A DNA stretch of 34,796 nucleotides, taken from assembly GCA_947311535.1 (NCBI GenBank), contig CAMZLP010000168.1, positions 1 to 34,796 of the forward strand. The letters are read 5' to 3'. Under the pieces are notes generated by a model, which saw only the letters and a program-made list of their open reading frames with translations, had not been told where the DNA came from and searched no databases. The DNA is from an uncultured Deinococcota bacterium. GTDB lineage: Bacteria; Deinococcota; Deinococci; Deinococcales; Trueperaceae. Shown here piece by piece: positions 2,400-24,027 of the stretch. A program made the position numbers and the translations under genes. Within the stretch, counting starts at the first letter, position 1. Each line of letters opens with the position of its first letter.

Positions 2400-3619
2400 G
2401 CAAGAAATTAAATATCCTATTAATAAGCCCAGACTATCCCAATGACCCCAAAGGTACAGGTATAGGTACTTATAGCCAATTAATGGCAAATAATTTGGCA
2501 GAATTAGGCCATCATGTCCATTTAGTCAGCCGAGCAGGGCAAAATCGGCTTATCAAAGAACAAAAAAATATAAGTTTTCATTTTATCGATATAGCAAGGC
2601 CAGATGTACCAGTAAATCCTAATTTTTTTAGACTGGTTTTCTTAGCACTTAAATCAATTAGGGCTGAATTTAAGTATCGCAAAGAAATTGCAAAAACAAT
2701 GCATAAGATATTAGATAATAATAAAATTGATATTATTGAATCAGCTGATGCATTTGCAGAAATATTGTTTTTCAAACAAAAAAATTATACCCATATCCCA
2801 CTAATTATTAGGCTTCACACGCCTTTATCAGTGGGTGAGTTATTTGATAAGAATGTTTCTGAAATCGTAAGGCGTTTAATTCGTATTCCGGAACGTAAGC
2901 AAATCTTAAAAGCCAGCCACTTAAGCGTACCAAGCCGAGCAGGGCAGATTCTTTTTCGCAAAGAAATGGCTTTGGAACATAAAGCAATTAGGGTAATTGC
3001 CAACCCACCCCCCAAAAACCTAAGCTTAAAAAAACGCTTAAAAACCAATGACTTTGAAGTAATCTATATTGGTAGAATAACAAGAACCAAGGGAATGCCA
3101 GTCTTGATGAAAGCAATTCCTATAGTACTAAAGCAAATTCCTAATGCCAAATTTACCCTAATCGGTGGAGATGCCGGAAACCCTGAGGGCTTTAAAGAAA
3201 AACTGGCTTGGCTAAAAGCTATGCTACCCGAGAATGCAAGAAAGTCGGTTGATTTTAAGGGGTATTTAGCTTTTGATGAATTTAGTTCTTATCTGGAAAA
3301 TGCAGCTGTTGCAATTATCCCATCATTATTTGACAATTTCCCTTATACCTGCCTAGAGCTGATGAGTTTTGGCAAAGCCATAGTTAGTAGTGACCAAGGT
3401 GGTATGGTTGAAATGCTTGATAACGGTAAAGCTGGAAGATTGTTTACTCCACCGAACCACAGTGAATTGGCAGAGAACATTATTGAGCTATTAAAAAACC
3501 CAGAATTGCGCCAAAAGTTGGGAGAACTAGCCCAAAAAAGAATGCTGAGCGAATACACCAAAGAGAAAATAATGCAAGAAACTGTTGAATATTATAAACA
3601 ATGTATAAATGAGCTTTAG
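2396..3619 (+). CDS. Glycosyltransferase family 4 (GT-B fold)
   Basis: The protein has 407 residues and two Rossmann-like halves. The N-terminal half opens with the acceptor-side loop GTGIGTYSQLMANNLAELGHHV (start and end quoted around residues 21-42, shared by GT4 enzymes). The C-terminal half begins with the standard VIYIGRITRTKGMPVLMKAI block near residue 220. It also has PSLFDNFPYTCLELMSFGKAI around residues 310-330; this is the position of the family E-x7-E donor-binding motif, here with Asp in place of the first Glu. GT4 enzymes retain anomeric configuration and use nucleotide sugars, often on lipid or polysaccharide acceptors. The GTG start overlaps the flippase-like gene by 4 bases. 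A second sugar transfer onto the glycolipid begun by the upstream enzyme is plausible, but the donor and acceptor are unknown. Confidence 0.88.
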   Translation: MSKKLNILLISPDYPNDPKGTGIGTYSQLMANNLAELGHHVHLVSRAGQNRLIKEQKNISFHFIDIARPDVPVNPNFFRLVFLALKSIRAEFKYRKEIAKTMHKILDNNKIDIIESADAFAEILFFKQKNYTHIPLIIRLHTPLSVGELFDKNVSEIVRRLIRIPERKQILKASHLSVPSRAGQILFRKEMALEHKAIRVIANPPPKNLSLKKRLKTNDFEVIYIGRITRTKGMPVLMKAIPIVLKQIPNAKFTLIGGDAGNPEGFKEKLAWLKAMLPENARKSVDFKGYLAFDEFSSYLENAAVAIIPSLFDNFPYTCLELMSFGKAIVSSDQGGMVEMLDNGKAGRLFTPPNHSELAENIIELLKNPELRQKLGELAQKRMLSEYTKEKIMQETVEYYKQCINEL

Positions 3620-3672: not shown

Positions 3673-6231
3673 ATGAATTTCCTATGGAAACTAGCTTTTA
3701 GAAACCTGCTGCGGCACAAGTGGCGAAGCCTAGCTACAGTTTTGGGTATATCTTTGGGCATTGCTGCTGTACTGGCTACTCTTTCGGTTGGTGACAATGT
3801 GCGGGCTAATATTGCTAGTACCTTAGAGGCCAGTACTGGTAAAGCAGATTTATTAGTTACCCCAGGCTCGCAAGGGCGGGCTATTTTTAATGTTGATGAT
3901 ATTTATGATTTGCTAGCTAACAATAGCAATGTAGAAAAAGTCTATCCAGTTTTAAATTTTAGGGCTGAGCCAAAAAGAACTATTGAAGGTTTTGAAAAAA
4001 GCGTAATCCCTGGGGTTGATTCTGGTTTCCAAATTTCGGCTAGATTAACCCAGTTTGTTGATGATTTACCTAGCACCTTGGTAGCCGGTGAGTTTCCTCA
4101 AAAGGGTTCTATGGCTATTGCTATTGCTGCTAACTTTGCCAAAGACCGAGGTATTAAGCTTGGGGATATGCTCGAGTTTAAAGCTAATCAGGCTAGTGAC
4201 TTTAAGCTAAAGGTTGTTGGTTTATTAGACCACACTTTGGGCTATGCTAGTACCAATGGCAGCCGAGTAGGTATTAGTAACTATTATGACCTAAGCGAGA
4301 TTCTAAAATACAAAAATAAAGCTTCCTTTTTTGAACTAATCCTAAAGGACTCAGTTAATCTTGAAAAAACTAAAGAAGAGCTAAGCGAACTAGTTGGTGA
4401 TAAATATGCTGTTACTTTGCCGTCTACAAGCGGTAATATTACTTTTGGAATAATAGATACTTTGCAAGCTAGTTTAAGTATTTTGGCAATTACCTTGTTG
4501 GCACTGGGTGGCTTTATGGCTTACAACACCTTTGCTGCTACAATTGTAGAACGCACCAAAGAATATGCACTTCTTAGGACAATCTGCTTGACCAAAGGTC
4601 AGGTAAAAAGCTTGGCCTTAAGTGAATCATTTATATTGAGCATTGCTGGGGTGATTACAGGCATACTTATTGGTATTTTGCTATCACTAAGCATAGTTAA
4701 ATTTAATTCTCAATTACTCGGTTATGAATTTAGAACCTTAGTCGTGCCTAGTTACGCAATTATAATTTCTTCTGTTGTTGGTATCTTAGTATCTTTATTA
4801 GCAGGTTTGCTACCAGCTATTTCGGCTAGTAACACCTCTCCTATTGCTGCAGTTAGACGCAACATTGAAAGCGAAAAAGTCAAATATCCTGGTTTGGGAT
4901 TTTTACTTTTAATACTAGGCGTATTAGCTGCTTTGTTACCTTGGCACGGCCTTTGGGCACTTATGGGTGGTTTTATTAGTATTGCTTTTATATTTTTAGG
5001 CATTAGCCTAATGAGCTCTATTATTCTAAAACCATTTAGCAAATTAGCAAGCCCTATTTTGGAGCGTATATTTGGCCTAGCTGGCAAACTTGGTGCCGAT
5101 TTTGCCTTACGCAATTCTGTAAGAAACGGGGTTGCCATAGGCACAGTAGTAATTGGTATTTCTTTAACTATTGGTGTAGGTGGCACGGTTTCTGGTATTA
5201 GCAAGGCCGTAGAAGATTGGGTTTATACAACAATTATTGGTGACATGTTTGTAACTTCGCCTGTGAGCTTTCCTAATGATTTTGAAAAACAAATTACTGA
5301 GCAAATTCCAGAAATTGATCAAACTAGTGGTGTTGGTATAAGAGTGGTTCGTTTTGCACCCGAAAACCAGACAAGAAAGCGCACAATTGCTTTAATTTTA
5401 GTAGACCCTGAGAGATTTGACCCAAAAACTGGCTTTGGTAAGTTTCAATATTTGGCCGGTAGCAATCAAAAAGGCTATGAAGCTCTTAAAGCTGGTGGCA
5501 AGGTTTTGGCAGCTAACACCATGCATGACCGCTTTGGCATAAACCTTGGTGATACTGTAAGTATACGTACTAAAGATGGCTTTGCTGACTTTCCGGTTGA
5601 GGGTATTGTAGTTGATTTTACTAGCGGTGGCGAAACTTTTGTAGCTAGTATCAATGATTTAGAACTATTTGGTGGCGGCAGCCCTGATCTTTATGTAATA
5701 ACTGTCCAAAATGGCATAACAGCTCAAGAAGCCAAAGACAAATTGCTAAAAGAATTTCCAGAATTGTATTTAGATATAACCTTAAACAAAGCCTATCAAG
5801 AGCGTATTTTAGCTTTTGTGCAGCAGAGCTTTACTTCTACCAATAGTTTATTAGCTTTAGCTATTTTTATAGCTGCCTTGAGCGTAGCAAACACTTTGGG
5901 TATGAGCTTAGTGAACCGCAAGCATGATATTGCTGTTTTACGTACTATAGGTTTAACCCGACGCGACATTAGATATGTGATTTTATCAGAAGGTATAATT
6001 GTCAGCGTTCTAGGTACTATTATTGGCCTAGCGGTTGGAATGCTCTTGGCTCGAGTAATTACTTTAGGAGCTAGTGCTTTGACAGGCTTTATATTAGAGC
6101 CATTTATCCCAATTAAATTAATCATTATTTCAATTATTATTTCACCAATATTGGGTATTATTGCCTCGTTATTACCCGCACGAAAAGCAGCTATGCAATC
6201 TCCTGTTGCTGCTCTTGGAGGACAAACTTGA
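3673..6231 (+). CDS. ABC transporter permease, duplicated FtsX/MacB-type
   Basis: This 852-residue membrane protein is built from two MacB/FtsX units. It starts with the typical LAFRNLLRHKWRSLATVLGI membrane entry (residues 7-26), then an extracytoplasmic MacB periplasmic-core-like domain (about 40-240). A first FtsX three-helix block (about 258-390) and a central hydrophobic hairpin (about 407-450) follow. A second entry helix near 485-515 leads to a second soluble domain and a final FtsX block (about 725-845) ending LPARKAAMQSPVAAL. This duplicated layout is found in permeases that extract lipids, lipoproteins or antimicrobials rather than import solutes. The stop codon overlaps the start of its ATPase by 4 bases (TTGA). 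It lies 53 bases after the glycosyltransferases in the same direction, so it may be the export pump of the glycolipid cluster; that substrate is inferred. Confidence 0.92.
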   Translation: MNFLWKLAFRNLLRHKWRSLATVLGISLGIAAVLATLSVGDNVRANIASTLEASTGKADLLVTPGSQGRAIFNVDDIYDLLANNSNVEKVYPVLNFRAEPKRTIEGFEKSVIPGVDSGFQISARLTQFVDDLPSTLVAGEFPQKGSMAIAIAANFAKDRGIKLGDMLEFKANQASDFKLKVVGLLDHTLGYASTNGSRVGISNYYDLSEILKYKNKASFFELILKDSVNLEKTKEELSELVGDKYAVTLPSTSGNITFGIIDTLQASLSILAITLLALGGFMAYNTFAATIVERTKEYALLRTICLTKGQVKSLALSESFILSIAGVITGILIGILLSLSIVKFNSQLLGYEFRTLVVPSYAIIISSVVGILVSLLAGLLPAISASNTSPIAAVRRNIESEKVKYPGLGFLLLILGVLAALLPWHGLWALMGGFISIAFIFLGISLMSSIILKPFSKLASPILERIFGLAGKLGADFALRNSVRNGVAIGTVVIGISLTIGVGGTVSGISKAVEDWVYTTIIGDMFVTSPVSFPNDFEKQITEQIPEIDQTSGVGIRVVRFAPENQTRKRTIALILVDPERFDPKTGFGKFQYLAGSNQKGYEALKAGGKVLAANTMHDRFGINLGDTVSIRTKDGFADFPVEGIVVDFTSGGETFVASINDLELFGGGSPDLYVITVQNGITAQEAKDKLLKEFPELYLDITLNKAYQERILAFVQQSFTSTNSLLALAIFIAALSVANTLGMSLVNRKHDIAVLRTIGLTRRDIRYVILSEGIIVSVLGTIIGLAVGMLLARVITLGASALTGFILEPFIPIKLIIISIIISPILGIIASLLPARKAAMQSPVAALGGQT

Positions 6232-7022: not shown

Positions 7023-9263
7023 TTGTTAAATAAAATTAGCCACATAGTTACAAATCATCCTCTAAGAGTTTTGGCTTTTTGGTTAGTTGTTACAGTCTTG
7101 GCTATACCCTTGACTCTCAATATTGACTCTGTATTAAGTAATAATACGGGCTTTGTTGCAGGTGGAGAAGCTCAGATCCATCAAAAGATTATTGAGTCTT
7201 CTTTTATTGGGGGCTCTAATATCGAGTTAATTTTAACGGTTGAGTCAACCCAAGAAAGCGACAGCCTTGATCATCTTTCAAGCAGTTTTTTTAAAACTTT
7301 AGATGAACTAAGAAAGCTGGATATCGTAAAAGGTATTCAAACCTCAGCATCGCAACCTTTAATTCCTAACTTTAGCCCCAAAGTACGCTCGAGCCTAGCC
7401 ATAATAGAATTAAAAGCCAAAGATTTCAAAGAAATTATGGCAGCTACTGAGTTTATTAAAAAACAATTGCCAAAAAATACTAATCTGAATTACCATTTGA
7501 CAGGCTGGCCTGCGGTTAGCCACGAGATTCAAGAGATAAGTAAGACTGACTCTTTAAGGGCTGAAGTAGTTGGTCTTAGTATCAGCCTTGTAATTCTGGC
7601 GCTTGTCTTCGGCTCTCTTGTGGCAGCAACCTTGCCACTTATTGTAGCTATTATCTCCATTATTTTATCACTAGCTTTGCTTTTTATTATTGGCCAATTT
7701 ATGCCTATTACTAGCTTTGGTGAAATTATAATTTCTCTTTTGGGTTTAGCAACTGGTATTGACTATGCACTACTTATGGTAAATCGCTTTAGAGAAGAAT
7801 TATTGAATGGACTCGAGCCTAAACAAGCTGCTGAAAAAACTGTATCAACTGCCGGTAAAGCTGTTTTAATAAGTGGTCTAACCGTCTTAATTGCCTTGTC
7901 TGCTTTATTGGTACCACCGCTGAGCTTTGTAAGAAGCTTGGGTTTAACCAGCATAGTTGTAATGTTTTTTAGCGTTAGCGTATCTATTACTCTAATGCCG
8001 GCAATTTTTACACTCTTAGGCAAAAAAATAAACTTATTAAAAATAACCAGAAGAGAGCCCGGAACTAGAACTAAAAAATTCTGGGGTAATAGAGCAGAAC
8101 ATATTATGAAATTTCCTTGGCTTTGGTCTATCTTTGGAATCACAATTTTATTAGCCATTAGTTTGCCAGCGCTTTCTATGCAAGTAGATGTTTCTGGCGT
8201 GCGCGGTTTAACCAAAGAAACCGAAATTAGAAAAGCTCAGGTAATCTTAGAAAGACTGAAATTAGATAGCTTGCAACGCTCAATAGATATATTAGTAGAT
8301 TTTGGTGATAGAGGCTTTTATCATCCCTCTTCTATTAGGAAAGTTTCCAAATTAGCTCGAGCAGCTGATCAGCTAGAAAATGTAGAAAGCAGTTTTTCGG
8401 CATATAGTACCCAAGGAGTACCGTCTCTATTAGTGCAACAATATTATGCTACTAAAGATATAGCTTTAGAAAGCCCTTTGCGTAACCTAGTACAGCATAC
8501 CATTAGTGAAGATGGTAGATATGCCCTTATTAGAGTCTTTCCTAAAAACGGTGTTTCACCAGGAGTTGCCAGTGCTATATTAGCTAATTTAAGAGACAAG
8601 AGTAAAGAATTAGAATTAGAAACTGTTTTTGGTGGCTCCTATTTAAACGACAAAGAATTTGCTGATGTTTTATACAGTAGCTTCCCATTAGCAATACTAT
8701 TAGTTTATTTAGCGACTTTTATTCTTTTGGGTTTAGCTTTTAAATCTATTTTAATTCCTATTAAATCTATTTTGTTAAATACTCTGGCAGTTGGTGCTGC
8801 TTTTGGAGTGATTACCGCAGTTTTTCAATTTGGTTGGTTTGCCCCTTTATTTGGTTTAGAAGAGGGTTTAGGTTTTATAGAAACAATAGTACCGGTTTTC
8901 ATTTTTGCAGTAATTTTTGGCCTTAGTATGGATTACGAAGTCTTCTTGGTTTCACGAATTTATGAAGGGCACAAGCAAGGTCTAAGCGATAAAGAAGCTG
9001 TAAAAAATGCCTTATCTTCAACAGGCAGTATTATTAGCAGCGCTTCATTAATTATGATAGTTGTCTTTATGGTCTTTATAGCAAGCCGAGTAGTTTTGAT
9101 TAAAACTCTGAGCTTGGGTTTAAGTGTGGCAATATTATTAGATGCCACTTTAGTGCGTTCTACTTTGGTACCTGCAATCATGTCTTTGGCAGGGCATTGG
9201 AATTGGTATATGCCTAAGTTTTTTATAAAAGTTGCCGACAAAATAAACCTCAGTCACGATTAG
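7023..9263 (+). CDS. MMPL-family RND transporter
   Basis: An RND-superfamily membrane transporter of the MMPL/HpnN type, about 746 residues with two six-helix halves and large extracytoplasmic loops. The two halves carry the matching helix motifs GLATGIDYALLMVNRFREE (about residues 243-261) and GLSMDYEVFLVSRIYE (about residues 635-650); the Asp-Tyr pairs are the proton-relay residues of this family. MMPL proteins export lipids, glycolipids or small molecules using the proton gradient. An in-frame TTG lies 15 bases upstream at 7008, but the TTG at 7023 is preferred because AAAAGGTG sits 4-5 bases before it and the protein then begins MLNKISHIVTNHP, the normal family start. Its place after the glycolipid genes and ABC pump suggests envelope-lipid traffic; the cargo is unknown. 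Confidence 0.92.
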   Translation: MLNKISHIVTNHPLRVLAFWLVVTVLAIPLTLNIDSVLSNNTGFVAGGEAQIHQKIIESSFIGGSNIELILTVESTQESDSLDHLSSSFFKTLDELRKLDIVKGIQTSASQPLIPNFSPKVRSSLAIIELKAKDFKEIMAATEFIKKQLPKNTNLNYHLTGWPAVSHEIQEISKTDSLRAEVVGLSISLVILALVFGSLVAATLPLIVAIISIILSLALLFIIGQFMPITSFGEIIISLLGLATGIDYALLMVNRFREELLNGLEPKQAAEKTVSTAGKAVLISGLTVLIALSALLVPPLSFVRSLGLTSIVVMFFSVSVSITLMPAIFTLLGKKINLLKITRREPGTRTKKFWGNRAEHIMKFPWLWSIFGITILLAISLPALSMQVDVSGVRGLTKETEIRKAQVILERLKLDSLQRSIDILVDFGDRGFYHPSSIRKVSKLARAADQLENVESSFSAYSTQGVPSLLVQQYYATKDIALESPLRNLVQHTISEDGRYALIRVFPKNGVSPGVASAILANLRDKSKELELETVFGGSYLNDKEFADVLYSSFPLAILLVYLATFILLGLAFKSILIPIKSILLNTLAVGAAFGVITAVFQFGWFAPLFGLEEGLGFIETIVPVFIFAVIFGLSMDYEVFLVSRIYEGHKQGLSDKEAVKNALSSTGSIISSASLIMIVVFMVFIASRVVLIKTLSLGLSVAILLDATLVRSTLVPAIMSLAGHWNWYMPKFFIKVADKINLSHD

Positions 9264-10210: not shown

Positions 10211-11494
10211 GTGAACAATGACATTCCACTGGCTGAACGCATGCGCCCGACTAGGCTCGAGCATATCCTAGGTCAAAAGCACTTATTAGCCGAGGGCAAA
10301 CCACTTTATCAGGCTATATTATCTAAAAATTTGTATTCTATGCTTCTTTGGGGACCACCCGGAGTAGGCAAGACAACTTTGGCTAAATTTATTGCCAGCC
10401 AAATAGATGCTCATTATATTGGCTTATCAGCGGTAAATGCCGGGGTAAAGGATATTAGGGCTGCCGCTCAAGAAGCTCAAAAAAGGCAAGAATCGGGTGA
10501 ACGAACTCTATTATTTTTAGATGAAGTCCATAGATTTAATAAAGCTCAGCAAGATATTTTATTGCCTTTTGTAGAAAATGGCACCTTAAGCCTAATTGCT
10601 GCCACCACCGAAAACCCATCTTTTGAAGTCAACTCGGCATTATTATCACGAATGCAGCTTTATGTCTTAGAAGCCTTAGATGATACTGCTATTGAAAAAT
10701 TGATAAAACGAGCCTTGCATGACAAAAATGGTTTTGCAGGCAAATTAGAGCTAGACAATGAGGCCTTTAAAATAATAACAGCTTGGGCAAATGGTGACGC
10801 AAGACGAGCTTTAGGGGCACTGGAAATAGCTGCTGGATTTGCTAAAAATAATTTATTAAACGCCCAAGCCATGAAAGATGCTCTTTCAGTTAAAACAATG
10901 GCTTTTGATAAATCTGGTGAGCATTTTTATAATTTAATTTCTGCTCTTCACAAGTCAGTGCGTGGCTGCGCTGCCAATGCTAGCTTGTACTGGCTAGCTA
11001 GGCTCTTAGAAGGCGGTGCAGACCCGCTCTATGTTGCTCGTAGACTAGTGCGTATTGCCTCCGAGGATATTGGTCTTGCTGACCCTAATGCCTTAAGGTT
11101 AGCAATCGCTGCCAAAGACGCCATTCATTTTTTGGGCATGCCCGAGGGAGAGCTCGCTTTGGCAGAGGCAACGTTTTATTTGGCAGTTGCCCCAAAATCT
11201 AATAGTATTTATACGGCTTACAGCCAAGCCAAGCAAGATGCCAAAACTTATAGCCATGCTGCTATCCCCTTGCATCTTCGCAATGCTCCTACTAAAATGA
11301 TGAAAGACTTGGACTATGGAAAAGAATATCAGTACTATTTTGACAATAAAACTGCCAGCTTTGCTCAAGAATACTTCCCAGATGGTTTAAGAAATCGGCA
11401 ATACTATCAGGCTCAAAATGAAGCTTGGGATAAAAAACTCTCCATACGCCTAGAAGAATTAGAAAATCTAAAAAAGGCAGCTAGAAAAGGATAA
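10211..11494 (+). CDS. rarA: Replication-associated recombination protein A (AAA+ ATPase)
   Basis: RarA/MgsA is an AAA+ ATPase related to clamp loaders and RuvB that acts at stalled replication forks and binds SSB. This 427-residue protein is of normal family length. It begins PLAERMRPTRLEHILGQKHL (residues 6-25), has Walker A GPPGVGKT (48-55), Walker B LLFLDEVHRF (about 100-109), sensor 1 AATTENPSFEVNSALLSR and sensor 2 GDARRAL. The C-terminal half includes EGGADPLYVARRLVR and the ASEDIGLADP block of the RarA tetramerisation region. The start is GTG, with an AAAGGT ribosome site rather far upstream (about 12 bases). The ROK kinase gene begins 2 bases after its stop codon, so both are probably in one transcript ending at the terminator near 12390. 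Confidence 0.95.
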   Translation: MNNDIPLAERMRPTRLEHILGQKHLLAEGKPLYQAILSKNLYSMLLWGPPGVGKTTLAKFIASQIDAHYIGLSAVNAGVKDIRAAAQEAQKRQESGERTLLFLDEVHRFNKAQQDILLPFVENGTLSLIAATTENPSFEVNSALLSRMQLYVLEALDDTAIEKLIKRALHDKNGFAGKLELDNEAFKIITAWANGDARRALGALEIAAGFAKNNLLNAQAMKDALSVKTMAFDKSGEHFYNLISALHKSVRGCAANASLYWLARLLEGGADPLYVARRLVRIASEDIGLADPNALRLAIAAKDAIHFLGMPEGELALAEATFYLAVAPKSNSIYTAYSQAKQDAKTYSHAAIPLHLRNAPTKMMKDLDYGKEYQYYFDNKTASFAQEYFPDGLRNRQYYQAQNEAWDKKLSIRLEELENLKKAARKG

Positions 11495-19910: not shown

Positions 19911-19950
19911 AAAGCTCGACCTATTGAGAAATAAGTTGAGCTTTTTCTAG
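19911..19950. terminator. Terminator between convergent genes
   Basis: AAAGCTCGAC (19911-19920) pairs with GTTGAGCTTT (19935-19944) with one G-U pair, followed by TTCTAG. It would end the oxidoreductase transcript. It overlaps the last codons of the ftsE remnant on the opposite strand. Confidence 0.6.
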
Positions 19951-20322
19951 TTTTAATATCACTTCAGCTTGCTTTGCAGCGACTAAATCATGAGTCACCA
20001 TAACTATCGTATTACCGTCTTGATGAAAATCCTTAATAAGCTTAAGAAGAAGATCACGATTCTTTTCGTCTAAATTACCTGTTGGCTCATCAGCTAATAA
20101 AACTTTGGGTTGTTTAACAATAGCTCGAGCAAAAGCAACTCTCTGTGATTCTCCACCAGAAAGCTCAGCTGGTAAATGTTTTGCCCTATCAGCCAAGCCA
20201 ACCTTTTCTAAAACCTGCATTACTTCCTTAGTATATTTTTTATCGTTATTGTTTTTTATTTCCAAAGCAAGATTTATATTGTCAAAAACACTTTGAGTAG
20301 GTATGAGCCGATAGTCTTGAAA
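19921..20322 (-). pseudogene. Truncated ftsE-like ABC ATPase (3' part only)
   Basis: Read on the minus strand from 20322, the frame gives FQDYRLIPTQSVFDNINLAL, the Q-loop region of an FtsE-type ATPase. It continues through LSGGESQR (signature), VLLADEPTGNLD (Walker B) and MVTHD to the stop at 19921, about 133 residues in all. The Walker A half is missing: a TAG codon lies directly before the Phe codon at 20322, and no P-loop is found upstream in any frame. A TTG at 20265 could start a shorter product of 114 residues, but it could not bind nucleotide normally. FtsE with FtsX links cell-wall hydrolases to division; no ftsX is adjacent. The break falls next to the peptide/ABC module, suggesting that its arrival or a deletion removed the 5' end. 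Confidence 0.75.
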
Positions 20323-20445: not shown

Positions 20446-21171
20446 TTAATCAAGAATTTTTCCAACTCTTCTGCTTAGCTGTATTAAGCCAAACGCATAG
20501 AAAACTACCGCTTCAGCAAAAAGAATTGGCAAGAATGTTGTATAATTTCCCCTTAGTGATTCACTCGCTAACGTCACTGGGTTTATTATCACAAGCATTT
20601 TAAGCACAGGGTGTAACTCTTGCAACGGTACGTATACACTACTTAGATACTGTAAGCTCCCGCCCAATAAGATGGTGAGAAGAGACAATTTAGAAAGGTC
20701 TTTTATTGCTACAGTCAACCCAGCCATCAAACCACTAATAGCACTCGAAAGCAATATCAATAGTATCAAATTCGGCAGTGTTGCGAGAACAGCTACACCA
20801 ATAATTAGAACTCCAGCAAGCAAAAGTGTTAAGGTCGATACCAATAAGCCCATTGTTAAGTTTGCGAACATTTTCACGCTAACCACTTGAGTTCGCGATA
20901 GTGGTAAACTAAGCCAATATCTAAGGCTACCCACTGATAGACCAGTAATTGTTGCGACCGTACTAAGCATTGCCGCCGTAACCATGGATAGTGGTATCCA
21001 ACCGCGAATAAAAAACTGCTGAGCTGCATCGCCACCAAAACTGCGATACCCTCGACTAATCATAAGCATGCCGACCACAGAGCTAAGCACAAATGGCAAC
21101 CATAGCTCCCAGCGACGTGCAGAACTCTTGGCCTCATAACCAAGTACTATCAAAATCTCTCGCAATGGCAT
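20446..21171 (-). CDS. ABC-2 type transporter permease
   Basis: A 241-residue permease with about six membrane helices and no extracytoplasmic domain. It starts with the amphipathic entry helix typical of ABC-2 exporters (MPLREILIVLGYEAKSSARRWELWL), then has helices near 26-42, 60-80, 104-135, 138-155, 160-185 and 215-233. The late block HPVLKMLVIINPVTLASESLRG is the ABC-2 signature region (INP...E.lR) near residues 187-208. Such permeases export drugs, peptides, lipids or polysaccharide with a separate ATPase, here encoded 4 bases upstream. It is the last complete gene of the minus-strand module that starts with the tiny ORF near 23074. The substrate is unknown; a small peptide is suggested only by context. 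Confidence 0.88.
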   Translation of the reverse strand: MPLREILIVLGYEAKSSARRWELWLPFVLSSVVGMLMISRGYRSFGGDAAQQFFIRGWIPLSMVTAAMLSTVATITGLSVGSLRYWLSLPLSRTQVVSVKMFANLTMGLLVSTLTLLLAGVLIIGVAVLATLPNLILLILLSSAISGLMAGLTVAIKDLSKLSLLTILLGGSLQYLSSVYVPLQELHPVLKMLVIINPVTLASESLRGNYTTFLPILFAEAVVFYAFGLIQLSRRVGKILD

Positions 21172-21175
21172 AGTA

Positions 21176-22156
21176 TTAGCTTTCTATTACGCTAATTATT
21201 CGTACGTCCGATTTACTCAATATAGATATTATTTCAGAAAGGGTGTTCTTAAGACCTTTCGTTTCAATAATTATTTTTACTTTTGCAAATAGATTTGGTC
21301 CGGACCCGGTATTGACGAATTGTCCGCCAATTGATTCCATATCTATATCATCCGCATTCGTCTTTTCGATTACAATAAGCTTGTCTTTTAATTGTGTCGG
21401 TAGACCTAGTTTACTAAGCATTTCCTCATCAAGTTCTATTTTTACATTAACTACACCAGCAAGATCTTTTATCGATTCTTCAAGCTTTGGCTTCCAATCT
21501 TCAAGCTCTAAAACTATCTTACTCTTTTTAAAACTCACTTGTTGGCCCCCTTTCAAAAGGTCATTTATATTTAGTTCTTTGTCCATCAAATCTATTATCG
21601 ATGGGTTATGGCTGGTCAAAAAAACTGCTTTATTTTTCTTTCGCATGTCAGCTAACCATTCCTTCAAAATAGTTATAGCTTCTTCATCTAATCCAGCCAT
21701 CGGTTCATCCAAGAAATAGATTTCTGCATCTTGAGCCAGAGCCTTTAATAGTTCTACCCGTTTGCTCTGACCACCTGACAACATGAATGGTTTTGATTTG
21801 GGTGATAGAGAAAATAATTCTAACCAATACTGTATTGTTGACCACGGAATCTTAAATAAGCGTGAGTGTAGCCTTAAACTTTCCTCTATTGGTATCATCG
21901 CCGAAAAGGAATTAAGCTGAAAGGCAACAGCTATTTTTCGGCGCACCAAATTTGACTTATACGGATTTTTGCCCAGCAGTTGAATATTACCACTATCCGG
22001 TCTCAATATACCTATTGCAAGCTGAATGATGGTGGATTTACCCGATCCATTAGAACCTGTAAGAGCAGTAAATTCACCAGATGCTATATCAAAAGAAATC
22101 GGAATTTGCCAAGCCCGTTCCTTAATTACATCTGTAAACTTCAATACATACTTCAT
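21176..22156 (-). CDS. ABC transporter ATP-binding protein (drug/peptide exporter type)
   Basis: The 326-residue protein has an N-terminal nucleotide-binding domain. Walker A is GSNGSGKST (residues 34-42), the Q-loop is VAFQLNSFSAMIPIEESLRLH, the signature is LSGGQSKR (126-133), Walker B is IYFLDEPMAGLD and the switch histidine lies in LTSHN. A long C-terminal extension of about 120 residues (about 205-326) has alternating beta and helix character with an acidic LDEEML segment. Extensions of this kind are common in exporters of the CcmA/DrrA class and may regulate activity. There is no clear ribosome site, and the gene starts 12 bases after the peptidase-like gene, so it probably depends on coupling. 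It pairs with the ABC-2 permease 4 bases downstream. Confidence 0.9.
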   Translation of the reverse strand: MKYVLKFTDVIKERAWQIPISFDIASGEFTALTGSNGSGKSTIIQLAIGILRPDSGNIQLLGKNPYKSNLVRRKIAVAFQLNSFSAMIPIEESLRLHSRLFKIPWSTIQYWLELFSLSPKSKPFMLSGGQSKRVELLKALAQDAEIYFLDEPMAGLDEEAITILKEWLADMRKKNKAVFLTSHNPSIIDLMDKELNINDLLKGGQQVSFKKSKIVLELEDWKPKLEESIKDLAGVVNVKIELDEEMLSKLGLPTQLKDKLIVIEKTNADDIDMESIGGQFVNTGSGPNLFAKVKIIIETKGLKNTLSEIISILSKSDVRIISVIES

Positions 22157-22168
22157 TATTGACGTTAA

Positions 22169-22936
22169 TTATAACCTAGCAGCGTTCTTTTTATAAAAAA
22201 TTGCATTAGTTATTTTTTCTACACCAGTTGGAGTATCAAGTAACGTAAATATATCAAATAAATCTTCATTCGTACCGTACTGCTCTGTAAATAACTTGAG
22301 TACTGTAGCATATAGCTTATGTTCTAATTCCTTATCATGCTCTTGATTTGCCCAATCCAATAATGCCTTAAATGGCTTTGTCATGTCCTTGATGTTATCA
22401 ACAGGTACATGTTTATGTCGCCAACCAAGAACCTCTTTCATTGAAGCCTCGCCCCACCTGGAATAATAATTTACTGCAACTGGTAATACATTACGATGAA
22501 ATTCTTTGAAAAAGATATACGCCGCCAACTGGGCAATACCCTCAACAATCCACCTAGGTTTTTCCTCATAGTTGAACTTCAAATTTATCTCTGTAACCTC
22601 ATGCACAAAATGCCATAAATTAACGTAACCAGGTTGCGCTATCCTCCACATTACAGGCACATCAAGCCTATTCTCGCCAAGAAAGCTTTTATAAATAAGC
22701 GTAGGATTCTTAGTCATCACACAGTGTACGGGCGAGAAGCCTCGCATGGGAATAATACGACTTAACCTTTGCGATATGGAACCGTACAATAGCTCGTCAC
22801 GATAATCTGAAAGCCCCCTCTCCCTCAAACATAAAAACCCGGTAGTAACATCTTCATGATCTGCAACAAGTTCAACTTTTTGCGACTTACCATTAGAGTA
22901 ACCAACCCATACATCCCACATGAAAACTTCAGACAA
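22169..22936 (-). CDS. Peptidase-MA-like protein with an HExxE motif
   Basis: I do not recognise a named family for this 255-residue protein. Its middle resembles gluzincin metalloproteases of the peptidase MA type. HFVHEVTEINLKF carries His-Glu at residues 112-113, and PRWIVEGIAQLAAY follows with the third-ligand-like Glu132, at the normal spacing of about 19 residues. The second zinc His is Glu (HEVTE), so it is either inactive, a variant metalloprotease, or a fold used for binding. There is no signal peptide, so it acts in the cytoplasm. The TTG at 22936 is chosen because AAGAGG lies 8 bases upstream and it falls after the attenuator hairpin; an in-frame GTG at 22963 lies inside the hairpin stem. 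It sits between the tiny ORF and the ABC exporter. Confidence 0.6.
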   Translation of the reverse strand: MSEVFMWDVWVGYSNGKSQKVELVADHEDVTTGFLCLRERGLSDYRDELLYGSISQRLSRIIPMRGFSPVHCVMTKNPTLIYKSFLGENRLDVPVMWRIAQPGYVNLWHFVHEVTEINLKFNYEEKPRWIVEGIAQLAAYIFFKEFHRNVLPVAVNYYSRWGEASMKEVLGWRHKHVPVDNIKDMTKPFKALLDWANQEHDKELEHKLYATVLKLFTEQYGTNEDLFDIFTLLDTPTGVEKITNAIFYKKNAARL

Positions 22937-22955
22937 AACAAACACCTCTTCACTT

Positions 22956-22991
22956 AAAAACACAAGCCATACTTACGTAGCTTGTGTTTTT
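22956..22991. terminator. Perfect 12-bp bidirectional terminator/attenuator in the peptide operon
   Basis: AAAAACACAAGC (22956-22967) is the exact reverse complement of GCTTGTGTTTTT (22980-22991), with a 12-base loop and T-runs on both strands. On the minus strand it lies 15 bases after the stop codon of the tiny ORF and 20 bases before the peptidase-like start. It would stop most transcripts after the tiny ORF and let only some continue into the protease and exporter genes. Confidence 0.88.
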
Positions 22992-23005
22992 ACTCAACTA
23001 AATCT

Positions 23006-23074
23006 CTATTCGGGTATAACAAATACTCCTGCAACTTGACCATCAATTAATATTACAACAAAATGTCCGCCCAC
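23006..23074 (-). CDS. Tiny ORF: candidate precursor or leader peptide
   Basis: A strong ribosome site, AGGAGGT (23084-23090), stands 9 bases before a GTG at 23074, giving a 22-residue peptide that ends at 23006. An in-frame ATG at 23095, upstream of the ribosome site, would give 29 residues. The 22-residue peptide begins MGGHF, has an alternating hydrophobic pattern VVILI-DGQ-VAGVFVI like a beta hairpin with an Asp-Gly turn, and ends PE. It has no Cys and no basic residue apart from His. A promoter with a palindrome in its spacer precedes it and a perfect terminator follows, the usual layout for a peptide precursor made in excess over its processing and export genes. A regulatory leader peptide is the main alternative. 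No homologue is known to me. Confidence 0.5.
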   Translation of the reverse strand: MGGHFVVILIDGQVAGVFVIPE

Positions 23075-23110
23075 TTTTACGATACCTCCTTTCATATAAA
23101 AGTACATAAA

Positions 23111-23138
23111 CCTATATTAGTACTGTACTAACAACCAA
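23111..23138 (-). promoter_or_regulatory. Candidate promoter of the peptide operon with palindrome in the spacer
   Basis: On the minus strand TTGGTT (23138-23133) and TATAGG (23116-23111) are 16 bases apart, placing the start of transcription near 23104, just before the ribosome site of the tiny ORF. The perfect odd palindrome TTAGTAC-T-GTACTAA (23117-23131) fills the spacer, where a repressor would block RNA polymerase. The -10 box is imperfect. Confidence 0.5.
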
Positions 23139-23195
23139 TATGACACTATAGCAATTCCAAAATAATGTGACAAGTGATTAGCATCATATTTTGGT

Positions 23196-23231
23196 ATGAC
23201 AATTGTCATGTTTTAGTATGATTATAGTCAT
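23196..23231. promoter_or_regulatory. Two tandem ATGAY-N4-GTCAT operators, 22 bp apart
   Basis: ATGACAATTGTCAT (23196-23209) is a perfect 14-base palindrome, and ATGATTATAGTCAT (23218-23231) is a near copy. Their centres are 22 bases apart, two turns of the helix, so two dimers would sit on the same DNA face. They lie about 60-95 bases upstream of the candidate -35 box of the tiny-ORF promoter, a normal place for activator sites. The LuxR-type gene next door is a natural candidate to bind here. Confidence 0.6.
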
Positions 23232-23454: not shown

Positions 23455-24027
23455 CTAGCCTTGCATGCTTTGTTTTACAAAATTATCAGGAAAGCCATGA
23501 GAACTAAAATAGTAAAGTGCAAGGTCAGATACGTTAGCCAAGCCAAGTTTGGAATATATTTCAGAAAGATAATTTCGCAAGGTAGTTGGGCTAATATGCA
23601 TCATTTTTGCTACTTGCTTTCTATCACTGTTTAAAGCACAGAGTTGGAGGGCTTTTCGCTCAGTTTTGCTAAGGGCTGACTCATACTTAGGTATTTTCTG
23701 GTAACCATTTTCCACAGCGACCATTTGAACAGCTAGTTTAATATCATCAAGGCCTATTGGCTTAGCCATTAAAACCATGGGCTTTAAATCTGACAAGTCT
23801 AAGTGGTACTCGCCACATTGGTTGTCGGTAATAATAATTGTTCTATTATTATTAATTTGAGCAAAAACCGAAAAAGCATAGCCCCATGGCGCATCTAAAA
23901 TTATATCTATTTGGGCTTGCTTGCTCAGCTCTAAAGTATCTAAGTAAGATTTTAGTAATTCGGCAAAAAACTTATTTCCACTATATATAGTTATATTGTT
24001 GTTGGTTTCATGATTTCCCAAAATCAT
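23455..24027 (-). CDS. LuxR/NarL-type transcription factor with degenerate receiver domain
   Basis: The 190-residue protein has a receiver-like N-terminal domain (about 10-115) and a LuxR-type helix-turn-helix at about 123-175 (LSKTERKALQLCALNSDRKQ, then the recognition helix SPTTLRNYLSEIYSKLGL). The receiver is atypical. The acidic pair expected after the first strand is replaced by YSGN, although an Asp after strand three (IILDAPWG) and the Lys-Pro of strand five (MAKPIG) remain. It is likely phosphorylation-independent and may sense a ligand or act constitutively. No histidine kinase is nearby, so it is an orphan. GAGGAGG stands directly before the ATG. It lies upstream of and in the same direction as the peptide/peptidase/ABC module, and is the best local candidate for its regulator. 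Confidence 0.8.
   Translation of the reverse strand: MILGNHETNNNITIYSGNKFFAELLKSYLDTLELSKQAQIDIILDAPWGYAFSVFAQINNNRTIIITDNQCGEYHLDLSDLKPMVLMAKPIGLDDIKLAVQMVAVENGYQKIPKYESALSKTERKALQLCALNSDRKQVAKMMHISPTTLRNYLSEIYSKLGLANVSDLALYYFSSHGFPDNFVKQSMQG

What the first reader, a model, noticed from the sequence alone, without database searches (positions are those of the whole stretch)
20446..23138. Candidate undescribed peptide module: tiny ORF, attenuator, peptidase-MA-like protein, ABC exporter
Seen: one strand carries, in order, a promoter with operators, a 22/29-codon ORF with a strong ribosome site, a perfect terminator hairpin, a peptidase-like gene, an ABC ATPase and an ABC-2 permease, with gaps of 4-12 bases between the last three. 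Known: bacteriocin and signalling-peptide loci often have a precursor gene, a partial terminator, then protease and exporter genes. Inference: this could be a new peptide-maturation/export system, or an exporter controlled by a leader peptide. I recognise neither the peptide nor the peptidase-like protein as a named system.
Basis: partly seen in the sequence, partly recalled or inferred. Interest (0 to 1): 0.8.

Follow-up and report, generated by a model that had tools for sequence, protein, structure and literature searches.

The report
Rare hydrophobic micro-peptide and export module
A rare gene set in a few Deinococcota bacteria, each copy beginning with a 21-24-residue mini-gene followed by a relative of zinc peptidases and an ABC export pump, looks like an undescribed way to make and ship out a small hydrophobic peptide; whether the peptide is made and what it does is untested.

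Summary
A 22-codon ORF (GTG 23074..23006, AAAGGAGGT ribosome site), a perfect 13-bp hairpin, a 255-residue HExxE protein, an ABC ATPase and an ABC-2 permease lie in one apparent operon. The HExxE protein has only two detectable relatives (3 of 111 sampled Deinococcota genomes; no others in a seed-based scan of 84,980 species), in a Thermaceae MAG (33% identity) and a Meiothermus MAG (22%). In all three loci a strong-ribosome-site ORF of 21-24 codons lies just upstream, followed by a hairpin, and an ABC exporter follows. By a uniform criterion only 6 such ORFs occur in 137 kb, and 3 are these. The peptides share a hydrophobic-turn-hydrophobic pattern ending in Glu. Fold and profile evidence points weakly to a gluzincin-like (zinc-peptidase) protein, with the second metal histidine replaced by glutamate in all three. 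The promoter box ATGACANNTGTCAT has one other exact copy in the assembled genome, upstream of an ABC exporter / DesK-type kinase operon. In two genomes the peptide and HExxE genes are AT-rich against the host. Best reading: a leaderless peptide with a dedicated HExxE protein and an exporter, probably envelope-acting. Activity and processing are unproven.

The parts
23196..23209 (.). Palindromic box ATGACAATTGTCAT; an imperfect copy (ATGATTATAGTCAT) lies 22 bases away at 23218-23231
   Evidence: ATGACANNTGTCAT occurs at only two places in the 2.7-Mb assembly, here and at G000:C179:510-523, upstream of an ABC exporter / DesK-type kinase operon
23145..23173 (-). Promoter-like site TTGTCA-17-TATAGT (TG before -10)
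   Evidence: consensus match only
23117..23131 (.). Perfect palindrome TTAGTACTGTACTAA just downstream of the -10, operator-like
23084..23092 (-). Ribosome site AAAGGAGGT of the tiny ORF
23006..23074 (-). Tiny ORF, 22 codons from GTG: MGGHFVVILIDGQVAGVFVIPE (ATG 23095 would give 29 codons)
   Evidence: positional equivalents in L008 (7846-7911) and L009 (171-245)
22955..22992 (-). Perfect 13-bp hairpin TAAAAACACAAGC/GCTTGTGTTTTTA, terminator-like
   Evidence: hairpins at the same place in L008 (13 bp, perfect) and L009 (12-bp arms, 92% complementary)
22169..22936 (-). HExxE protein (255 aa from TTG 22936; longest frame starts GTG 22963), gluzincin-like, no TM segment predicted
   Evidence: conserved H-E-x-x-E, PRW(I/L)VE, IxQ, AY
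21176..22156 (-). ABC ATPase with a ~120-aa C-terminal extension
   Evidence: 39% identical to the L008 ATPase
20446..21171 (-). ABC-2 type permease, 241 aa
   Evidence: 52% identical to the L008 permease
23455..24027 (-). 190-aa protein with a C-terminal LuxR-type HTH, upstream on the same strand; possible regulator, not shown to belong
   Evidence: not seen at the L008 locus

Best explanation
The unit makes and exports a leaderless, hydrophobic micro-peptide of 21-24 residues. Shown by sequence: the tiny ORF, a hairpin, an HExxE protein and an ABC exporter recur in this order in three diverged Deinococcota loci. Inferred: the tiny ORF is translated strongly from its own ribosome site. The hairpin stops part of the transcription after it, so peptide is made in excess over the proteins. 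The HExxE protein, a gluzincin-like cytoplasmic protein, binds, trims or detoxifies the peptide before or during export, and the ABC pair pumps it out. The peptide probably folds as a small beta-hairpin (turns DG, NG, CGRGGC) and acts on membranes, as an antagonist or a signal. Transcription is probably set by a NarL/DesR-type regulator of envelope stress, because the promoter box is shared only with an ABC exporter / DesK-type kinase operon.
For: Conserved order in 3 of 3 loci. Strong-ribosome-site micro-ORFs are rare: 6 in 136.8 kb, of which 3 are these. Peptide similarity window/L008 beats 99.7% of composition shuffles. Hairpins after the ORF in all three. No TM segment in the HExxE protein. 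Gluzincins top the fold search of one model and rank high in the other, all at non-significant E-values. Two of the three weak profile hits outside the family align at a gluzincin-like zinc-helix region, one of them with HExxH. HEXXE is the conserved motif of the CLCA1 metalloprotease domain (PMC6851300). The ABC pair without peptide and HExxE genes carries a stop codon or frameshift in the two other genomes that hold it. Peptide and HExxE genes are AT-rich (46-50% GC) against 57-67% for the whole locus in L008 and L009. Shared promoter box.
Against: Only three family members are known, so coding conservation cannot be measured properly. Window/L009 peptide similarity is no better than shuffled (17% of shuffles reach it) and L008/L009 is marginal (3%). 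The metal motif lacks the second histidine and may be inactive. AF2 models are weak (pLDDT 65 and 51), and no Foldseek hit is significant. The Meiothermus locus uses an unrelated full-size ABC exporter, so the exporter link there rests on position. No expression data.
Confidence: 0.5

Rival explanations
1. The tiny ORF is a regulatory leader: its translation and the following hairpin control (attenuate) the HExxE-ABC genes, and the peptide itself has no function.
For: Small ORF followed by a terminator-like hairpin in all three loci; operators upstream.
Against: The 13-bp stem leaves the downstream ribosome site free (22943-22951), and no competing structure appears in the fold of the leader. 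No run of one codon and no stalling motif recognised by eye. The amino-acid pattern is kept between window and L008. In L008 and L009 the hairpin has no U-run (no terminator-like site).
Confidence: 0.17
2. A sub-version of the best explanation: the HExxE protein is an immunity or chaperone protein (a dead gluzincin that binds the peptide), not a processing enzyme; the peptide is exported as translated, as a leaderless toxin.
For: HExxE in all three copies instead of HExxH; the peptide is so short that little could be trimmed; AT-rich peptide+HExxE pair with either of two unrelated exporters.
Against: The catalytic-type Glu of HExxE and the downstream Glu of PRWxVE are invariant in all three, which a pure binding protein would not need; HEXXE is the motif of the CLCA1 metalloprotease domain (PMC6851300).
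Confidence: 0.3
3. Signalling pheromone, in the manner of short hydrophobic peptides exported by PptAB in streptococci and re-imported to act on a regulator.
For: Size and hydrophobicity resemble SHP precursors, exported by an ABC pair and processed by the metalloprotease Eep (PMC5167397).
Against: No Rgg/RRNPP-type regulator recognised among the window or L008 ORFs; the peptide lacks the positively charged start typical of SHPs (my knowledge, not tested).
Confidence: 0.15
4. Chance ORF in front of an ordinary ABC exporter operon.
For: Family of three only; short ORFs occur by chance.
Against:: 3 of the 6 such ORFs in 136.8 kb fall just upstream of the three HExxE genes; matching hairpins.
Confidence: 0.05

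Closest known systems
Epipeptide system yydFGHIJ of Bacillus subtilis (PMC7026026)
   Same: Short peptide gene, a putative protease gene (YydH) and an ABC pair (YydIJ) in one operon; link to an envelope-stress two-component system
   Different: No radical SAM epimerase here; YydF has a longer precursor; YydH is membrane-bound, whereas the HExxE protein has no TM segment
SHP pheromones and PptAB (PMC5167397)
   Same: Short hydrophobic peptide exported by an ABC pair; metalloprotease (Eep) involved
   Different: Exporter not encoded beside the peptide; no Rgg-type regulator seen here; peptide sequences unlike
Leaderless bacteriocins (aureocin A53, enterocin DD14 group; PMC6131525, PMC13262744, seen as abstracts)
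   Same: Peptide made without a leader, with a dedicated ABC exporter and a helper/immunity gene
   Different: Those are longer cationic helical peptides (my knowledge); here 21-24 residues, beta-type pattern; no known family hit
Peptidase_MA_2 / M1-type gluzincins (PF13485)
   Same: Helix with H-E-x-x-, downstream W-x-x-E-G/T helix, predicted topology, weak profile and fold links
   Different: HExxE instead of HExxH; no Pfam, NCBIfam or PADLOC match at any useful score
Linearmycin-type resistance operons, DesK-like kinase plus ABC exporter (LnrJK, PMC7472640, title and abstract)
   Same: The second carrier of the promoter box in this genome is an ABC exporter plus HisKA_3 kinase plus NarL-type regulator operon
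   Different: That operon is elsewhere in the genome and only shares the box; regulation not shown

Membership tests
Gluzincin metallopeptidase (Peptidase MA superfamily) | HExxH zinc motif | tested here: not met
   HEVTE, HEVAE, HEWFE in the three members
Gluzincin metallopeptidase (Peptidase MA superfamily) | Third-ligand Glu in a helix downstream of the motif | tested here: met
   PRW(I/L)VE, Glu 16 residues after the last motif Glu, invariant and helical in the model
Gluzincin metallopeptidase (Peptidase MA superfamily) | Fold | tested here: inconclusive
   AF2 pTM 0.69; best Foldseek hits are M1 aminopeptidases and lugdulysin but E 0.16-0.5
Epipeptide (YydF) system | Radical SAM epimerase gene next to the peptide gene | tested here: not met
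   No such gene recognised among the ORFs around the module in the window, L008 and L009 (read by eye, Pfam run only on module genes and some neighbours)
Epipeptide (YydF) system | Membrane-bound protease | tested here: not met
   No 19-residue window above KD 1.6 in any of the three HExxE proteins
Double-glycine peptide with peptidase-containing ABC exporter | C39 peptidase domain on the exporter and GG leader | tested here: not met
   ATPase, permease and the L009 exporter have no C39 domain; no leader before a GG
SHP/Rgg quorum sensing | Adjacent Rgg-type regulator | tested here: not met
   Upstream gene is a LuxR-HTH protein; none recognised in L008
Leaderless bacteriocin | Antimicrobial activity of the untrimmed peptide | not testable with these tools
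   Needs synthetic peptide and an assay
ABC-2 type exporter | ABC_tran ATPase plus ABC2_membrane permease above curated cut-offs | tested here: met
   88.8 bits (cut-off 25) and 35.6 bits (cut-off 26.9)

The most novel reading that the evidence does not exclude
A new class of leaderless beta-hairpin micro-peptides handled by a new, HExxE-type branch of the gluzincins that processes or modifies the peptide before export, carried as a movable peptide + HExxE pair that is joined to different exporters.
Probability: 0.3. Interest if true: 0.75.

Novelty: new variant of a known kind. Interest (0 to 1): 0.55.

Why it matters
Peptides of this size are missed by gene callers and few are known outside Firmicutes (my knowledge). 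If the peptide is made, this gives Deinococcota a dedicated short-peptide export route, offers a ready genetic test of an HExxE metalloprotein, and ties it to an envelope-stress regulator through one shared box.

Tried and rejected
No match of the HExxE protein in plasmids, phages or viral contigs. A wider profile search of 390 genomes gave three weak hits: one Peptidase_MA-like protein with a beta-propeller-like neighbour, one HExxH protein, and one unrelated. PF13485 itself is barely present in relatives. The single genome-contig scan relies on short conserved seeds, so distant members could be missed. PADLOC hits of the ATPases are generic P-loop hits. A second AF2 model with the Thermaceae protein first was poorer. 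A tiny-ORF plus MFS unit was considered, because an MFS gene lies near the ABC pair in G048 and L008 and an MFS fragment lies in L009: rejected, since these MFS proteins share only short matches (best 20 residues). No small ORF with a strong ribosome site stands before the ABC pair in G048 or G044. No long direct repeats flank the module in the window.

Full report
What is there. On the - strand the window carries a tiny ORF (23074..23006, 22 codons from GTG, MGGHFVVILIDGQVAGVFVIPE), a perfect 13-bp hairpin (22955-22992), a 255-residue protein (22936..22169 from TTG; 264 from the first in-frame GTG), an ABC ATPase (22156..21176) and an ABC-2 permease (21171..20446), with gaps of 12 and 4 bases between the last three. 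The 29-codon reading of the tiny ORF starts at ATG 23095, but its ribosome site AAAGGAGGT (23084-23092) lies inside that frame, so GTG 23074 is the likelier start. The peptidase-like protein has the motif WHFVHEVTE...PRWIVEGIAQLAAY, that is HExxE, not HExxH.

Relatives. Among 111 Deinococcota genomes only three carry the HExxE protein. A seed-based scan of 84,980 species returned the same two relatives and no more: a Thermaceae MAG (L008 = G073, 33% identity) and a Meiothermus MAG (L009 = G107, 22%). Plasmids, phages and viral contigs gave none. The window's genome is placed in the same order as these, hence in Deinococcota (inference).

The requested test. In L008 the HExxE gene is followed by an ATPase and permease of the same kind (39% and 52% identity); in L009 by an unrelated full-size ABC exporter. 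Upstream of each lies a micro-ORF: MGGGVLIVCGRGGCIIVIITE in L008 (7846-7911) and MKRKSVLAGVTITLPNGTVIKIKE in L009 (171-245). With one rule (18-30 codons, at least 8 of 10 bases of AAGGAGGTGA, spacing 3-11) 136.8 kb of window and locus DNA holds six such ORFs; three are these. Each is followed by a hairpin 14-26 bases after its stop: 13 bp perfect, 13 bp perfect, and 12-bp arms at 92%. No shuffle out of 1000 reaches the perfect stem in the first two; in L009 85 of 1000 reach its 7-bp perfect core, so that hairpin is not significant by this measure.

The peptides. All are short, end in Glu and have a hydrophobic stretch, a turn (DG, CGRGGC, NG) and another hydrophobic stretch. Window and L008 peptides align better than 99.7% of composition shuffles; L008/L009 better than 96.7%; window/L009 not significantly. 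A beta-hairpin is inferred from pattern only; it was not modelled, as the peptides are below the tool's 30-residue floor.

The HExxE protein. No family in Pfam, NCBIfam, PHROGs or PADLOC matches it usefully. An AF2 model (pLDDT 65, pTM 0.69) has an N-terminal strand pair, the HExxE helix, a helix with the second conserved Glu and a helical C-terminus. Foldseek puts insulin-regulated aminopeptidase and lugdulysin first and third for that model, and ten chains of M1 aminopeptidases at the top for a weaker second model, none with a significant E-value. Weak profile hits outside the family include a Peptidase_MA-like protein and an HExxH protein aligned over the motif. Together this supports a gluzincin-like fold but does not prove it. 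HEXXE is the conserved motif of the metalloprotease domain of CLCA1 (PMC6851300), so the exchange does not by itself mean a dead enzyme. No TM segment is predicted.

Exporter. The ATPase C-terminal extension and the permease occur in only four of 111 Deinococcota genomes at strong scores: the window genome, L008's, and G048 and G044. In G048 and G044 the pair has no micro-ORF or HExxE gene and is damaged (a TAG in one permease, a frameshift in the other ATPase). Loss of the pair's integrity where the peptide is missing fits a dedicated exporter, but two cases are few.

Mobility. In L008 and L009 the micro-ORF and HExxE gene have 46-50% GC, while the exporters have 64-67%. In L008 the module is flanked by two copies, 135 bp and 97% identical, of the end of prfB (7577-7711 and 10658-10792), as after insertion or duplication at prfB. 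The window shows no such repeat.

Regulation. The box ATGACANNTGTCAT has two exact places in the 2.7-Mb assembly and none when read backwards: the promoter region here (23196-23209, with an imperfect copy 22 bases away) and G000:C179:510-523, in front of an ABC ATPase, an ABC-2 permease, a HisKA_3 histidine kinase and, by reading the sequence, the start of a NarL-type response regulator. Such kinase-exporter operons in Bacillus answer membrane-active compounds (LnrJK). I infer a shared envelope-stress regulator. The assembly is 92% complete, so further copies may be missing.

Mechanism and verdict. Best supported: a leaderless hydrophobic micro-peptide, made in excess through the hairpin, handled by a gluzincin-like HExxE protein and exported by the ABC pair. 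The conserved layout is shown; translation, export, cleavage and target are inferred. The closest known layout is yydFGHIJ, which adds a radical SAM epimerase and has a membrane protease. I rate it a new variant of a known kind.

Noticed in passing
G000:C179:510-523 (L037): Second exact ATGACANNTGTCAT, upstream of an ABC ATPase / ABC-2 permease / DesK-type kinase / NarL-type regulator operon.
   Followed up: partly
L008:7772-7813: A run of 21 G lies between TTGACA/ATGACA and TAATAT just before the micro-ORF; such runs of 15 or more are rare inside this genome's contigs. Possible phase-variable promoter, or an assembly effect.
   Followed up: partly
L041:1050-1130 and 3430-3490 (G044): Two TTGACAAA...G16-TA promoter-like sites in front of unnamed proteins with signal-like starts, resembling the L008 promoter.
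   Followed up: no
L008:7577-7711 and 10658-10792; L015:2339-2421 and 4008-4090: Repeated end of prfB next to different small gene sets in two genomes, as if prfB's end were an insertion hot spot.
   Followed up: partly
window 19921-20265: Truncated ABC ATPase (114 aa, lacking its first part) directly downstream of the permease on the same strand; probably a remnant of another exporter.
   Followed up: no
L015 and L016 (G048, G044): Damaged ABC pair behind an MFS gene, without micro-ORF or HExxE gene.
   Followed up: partly
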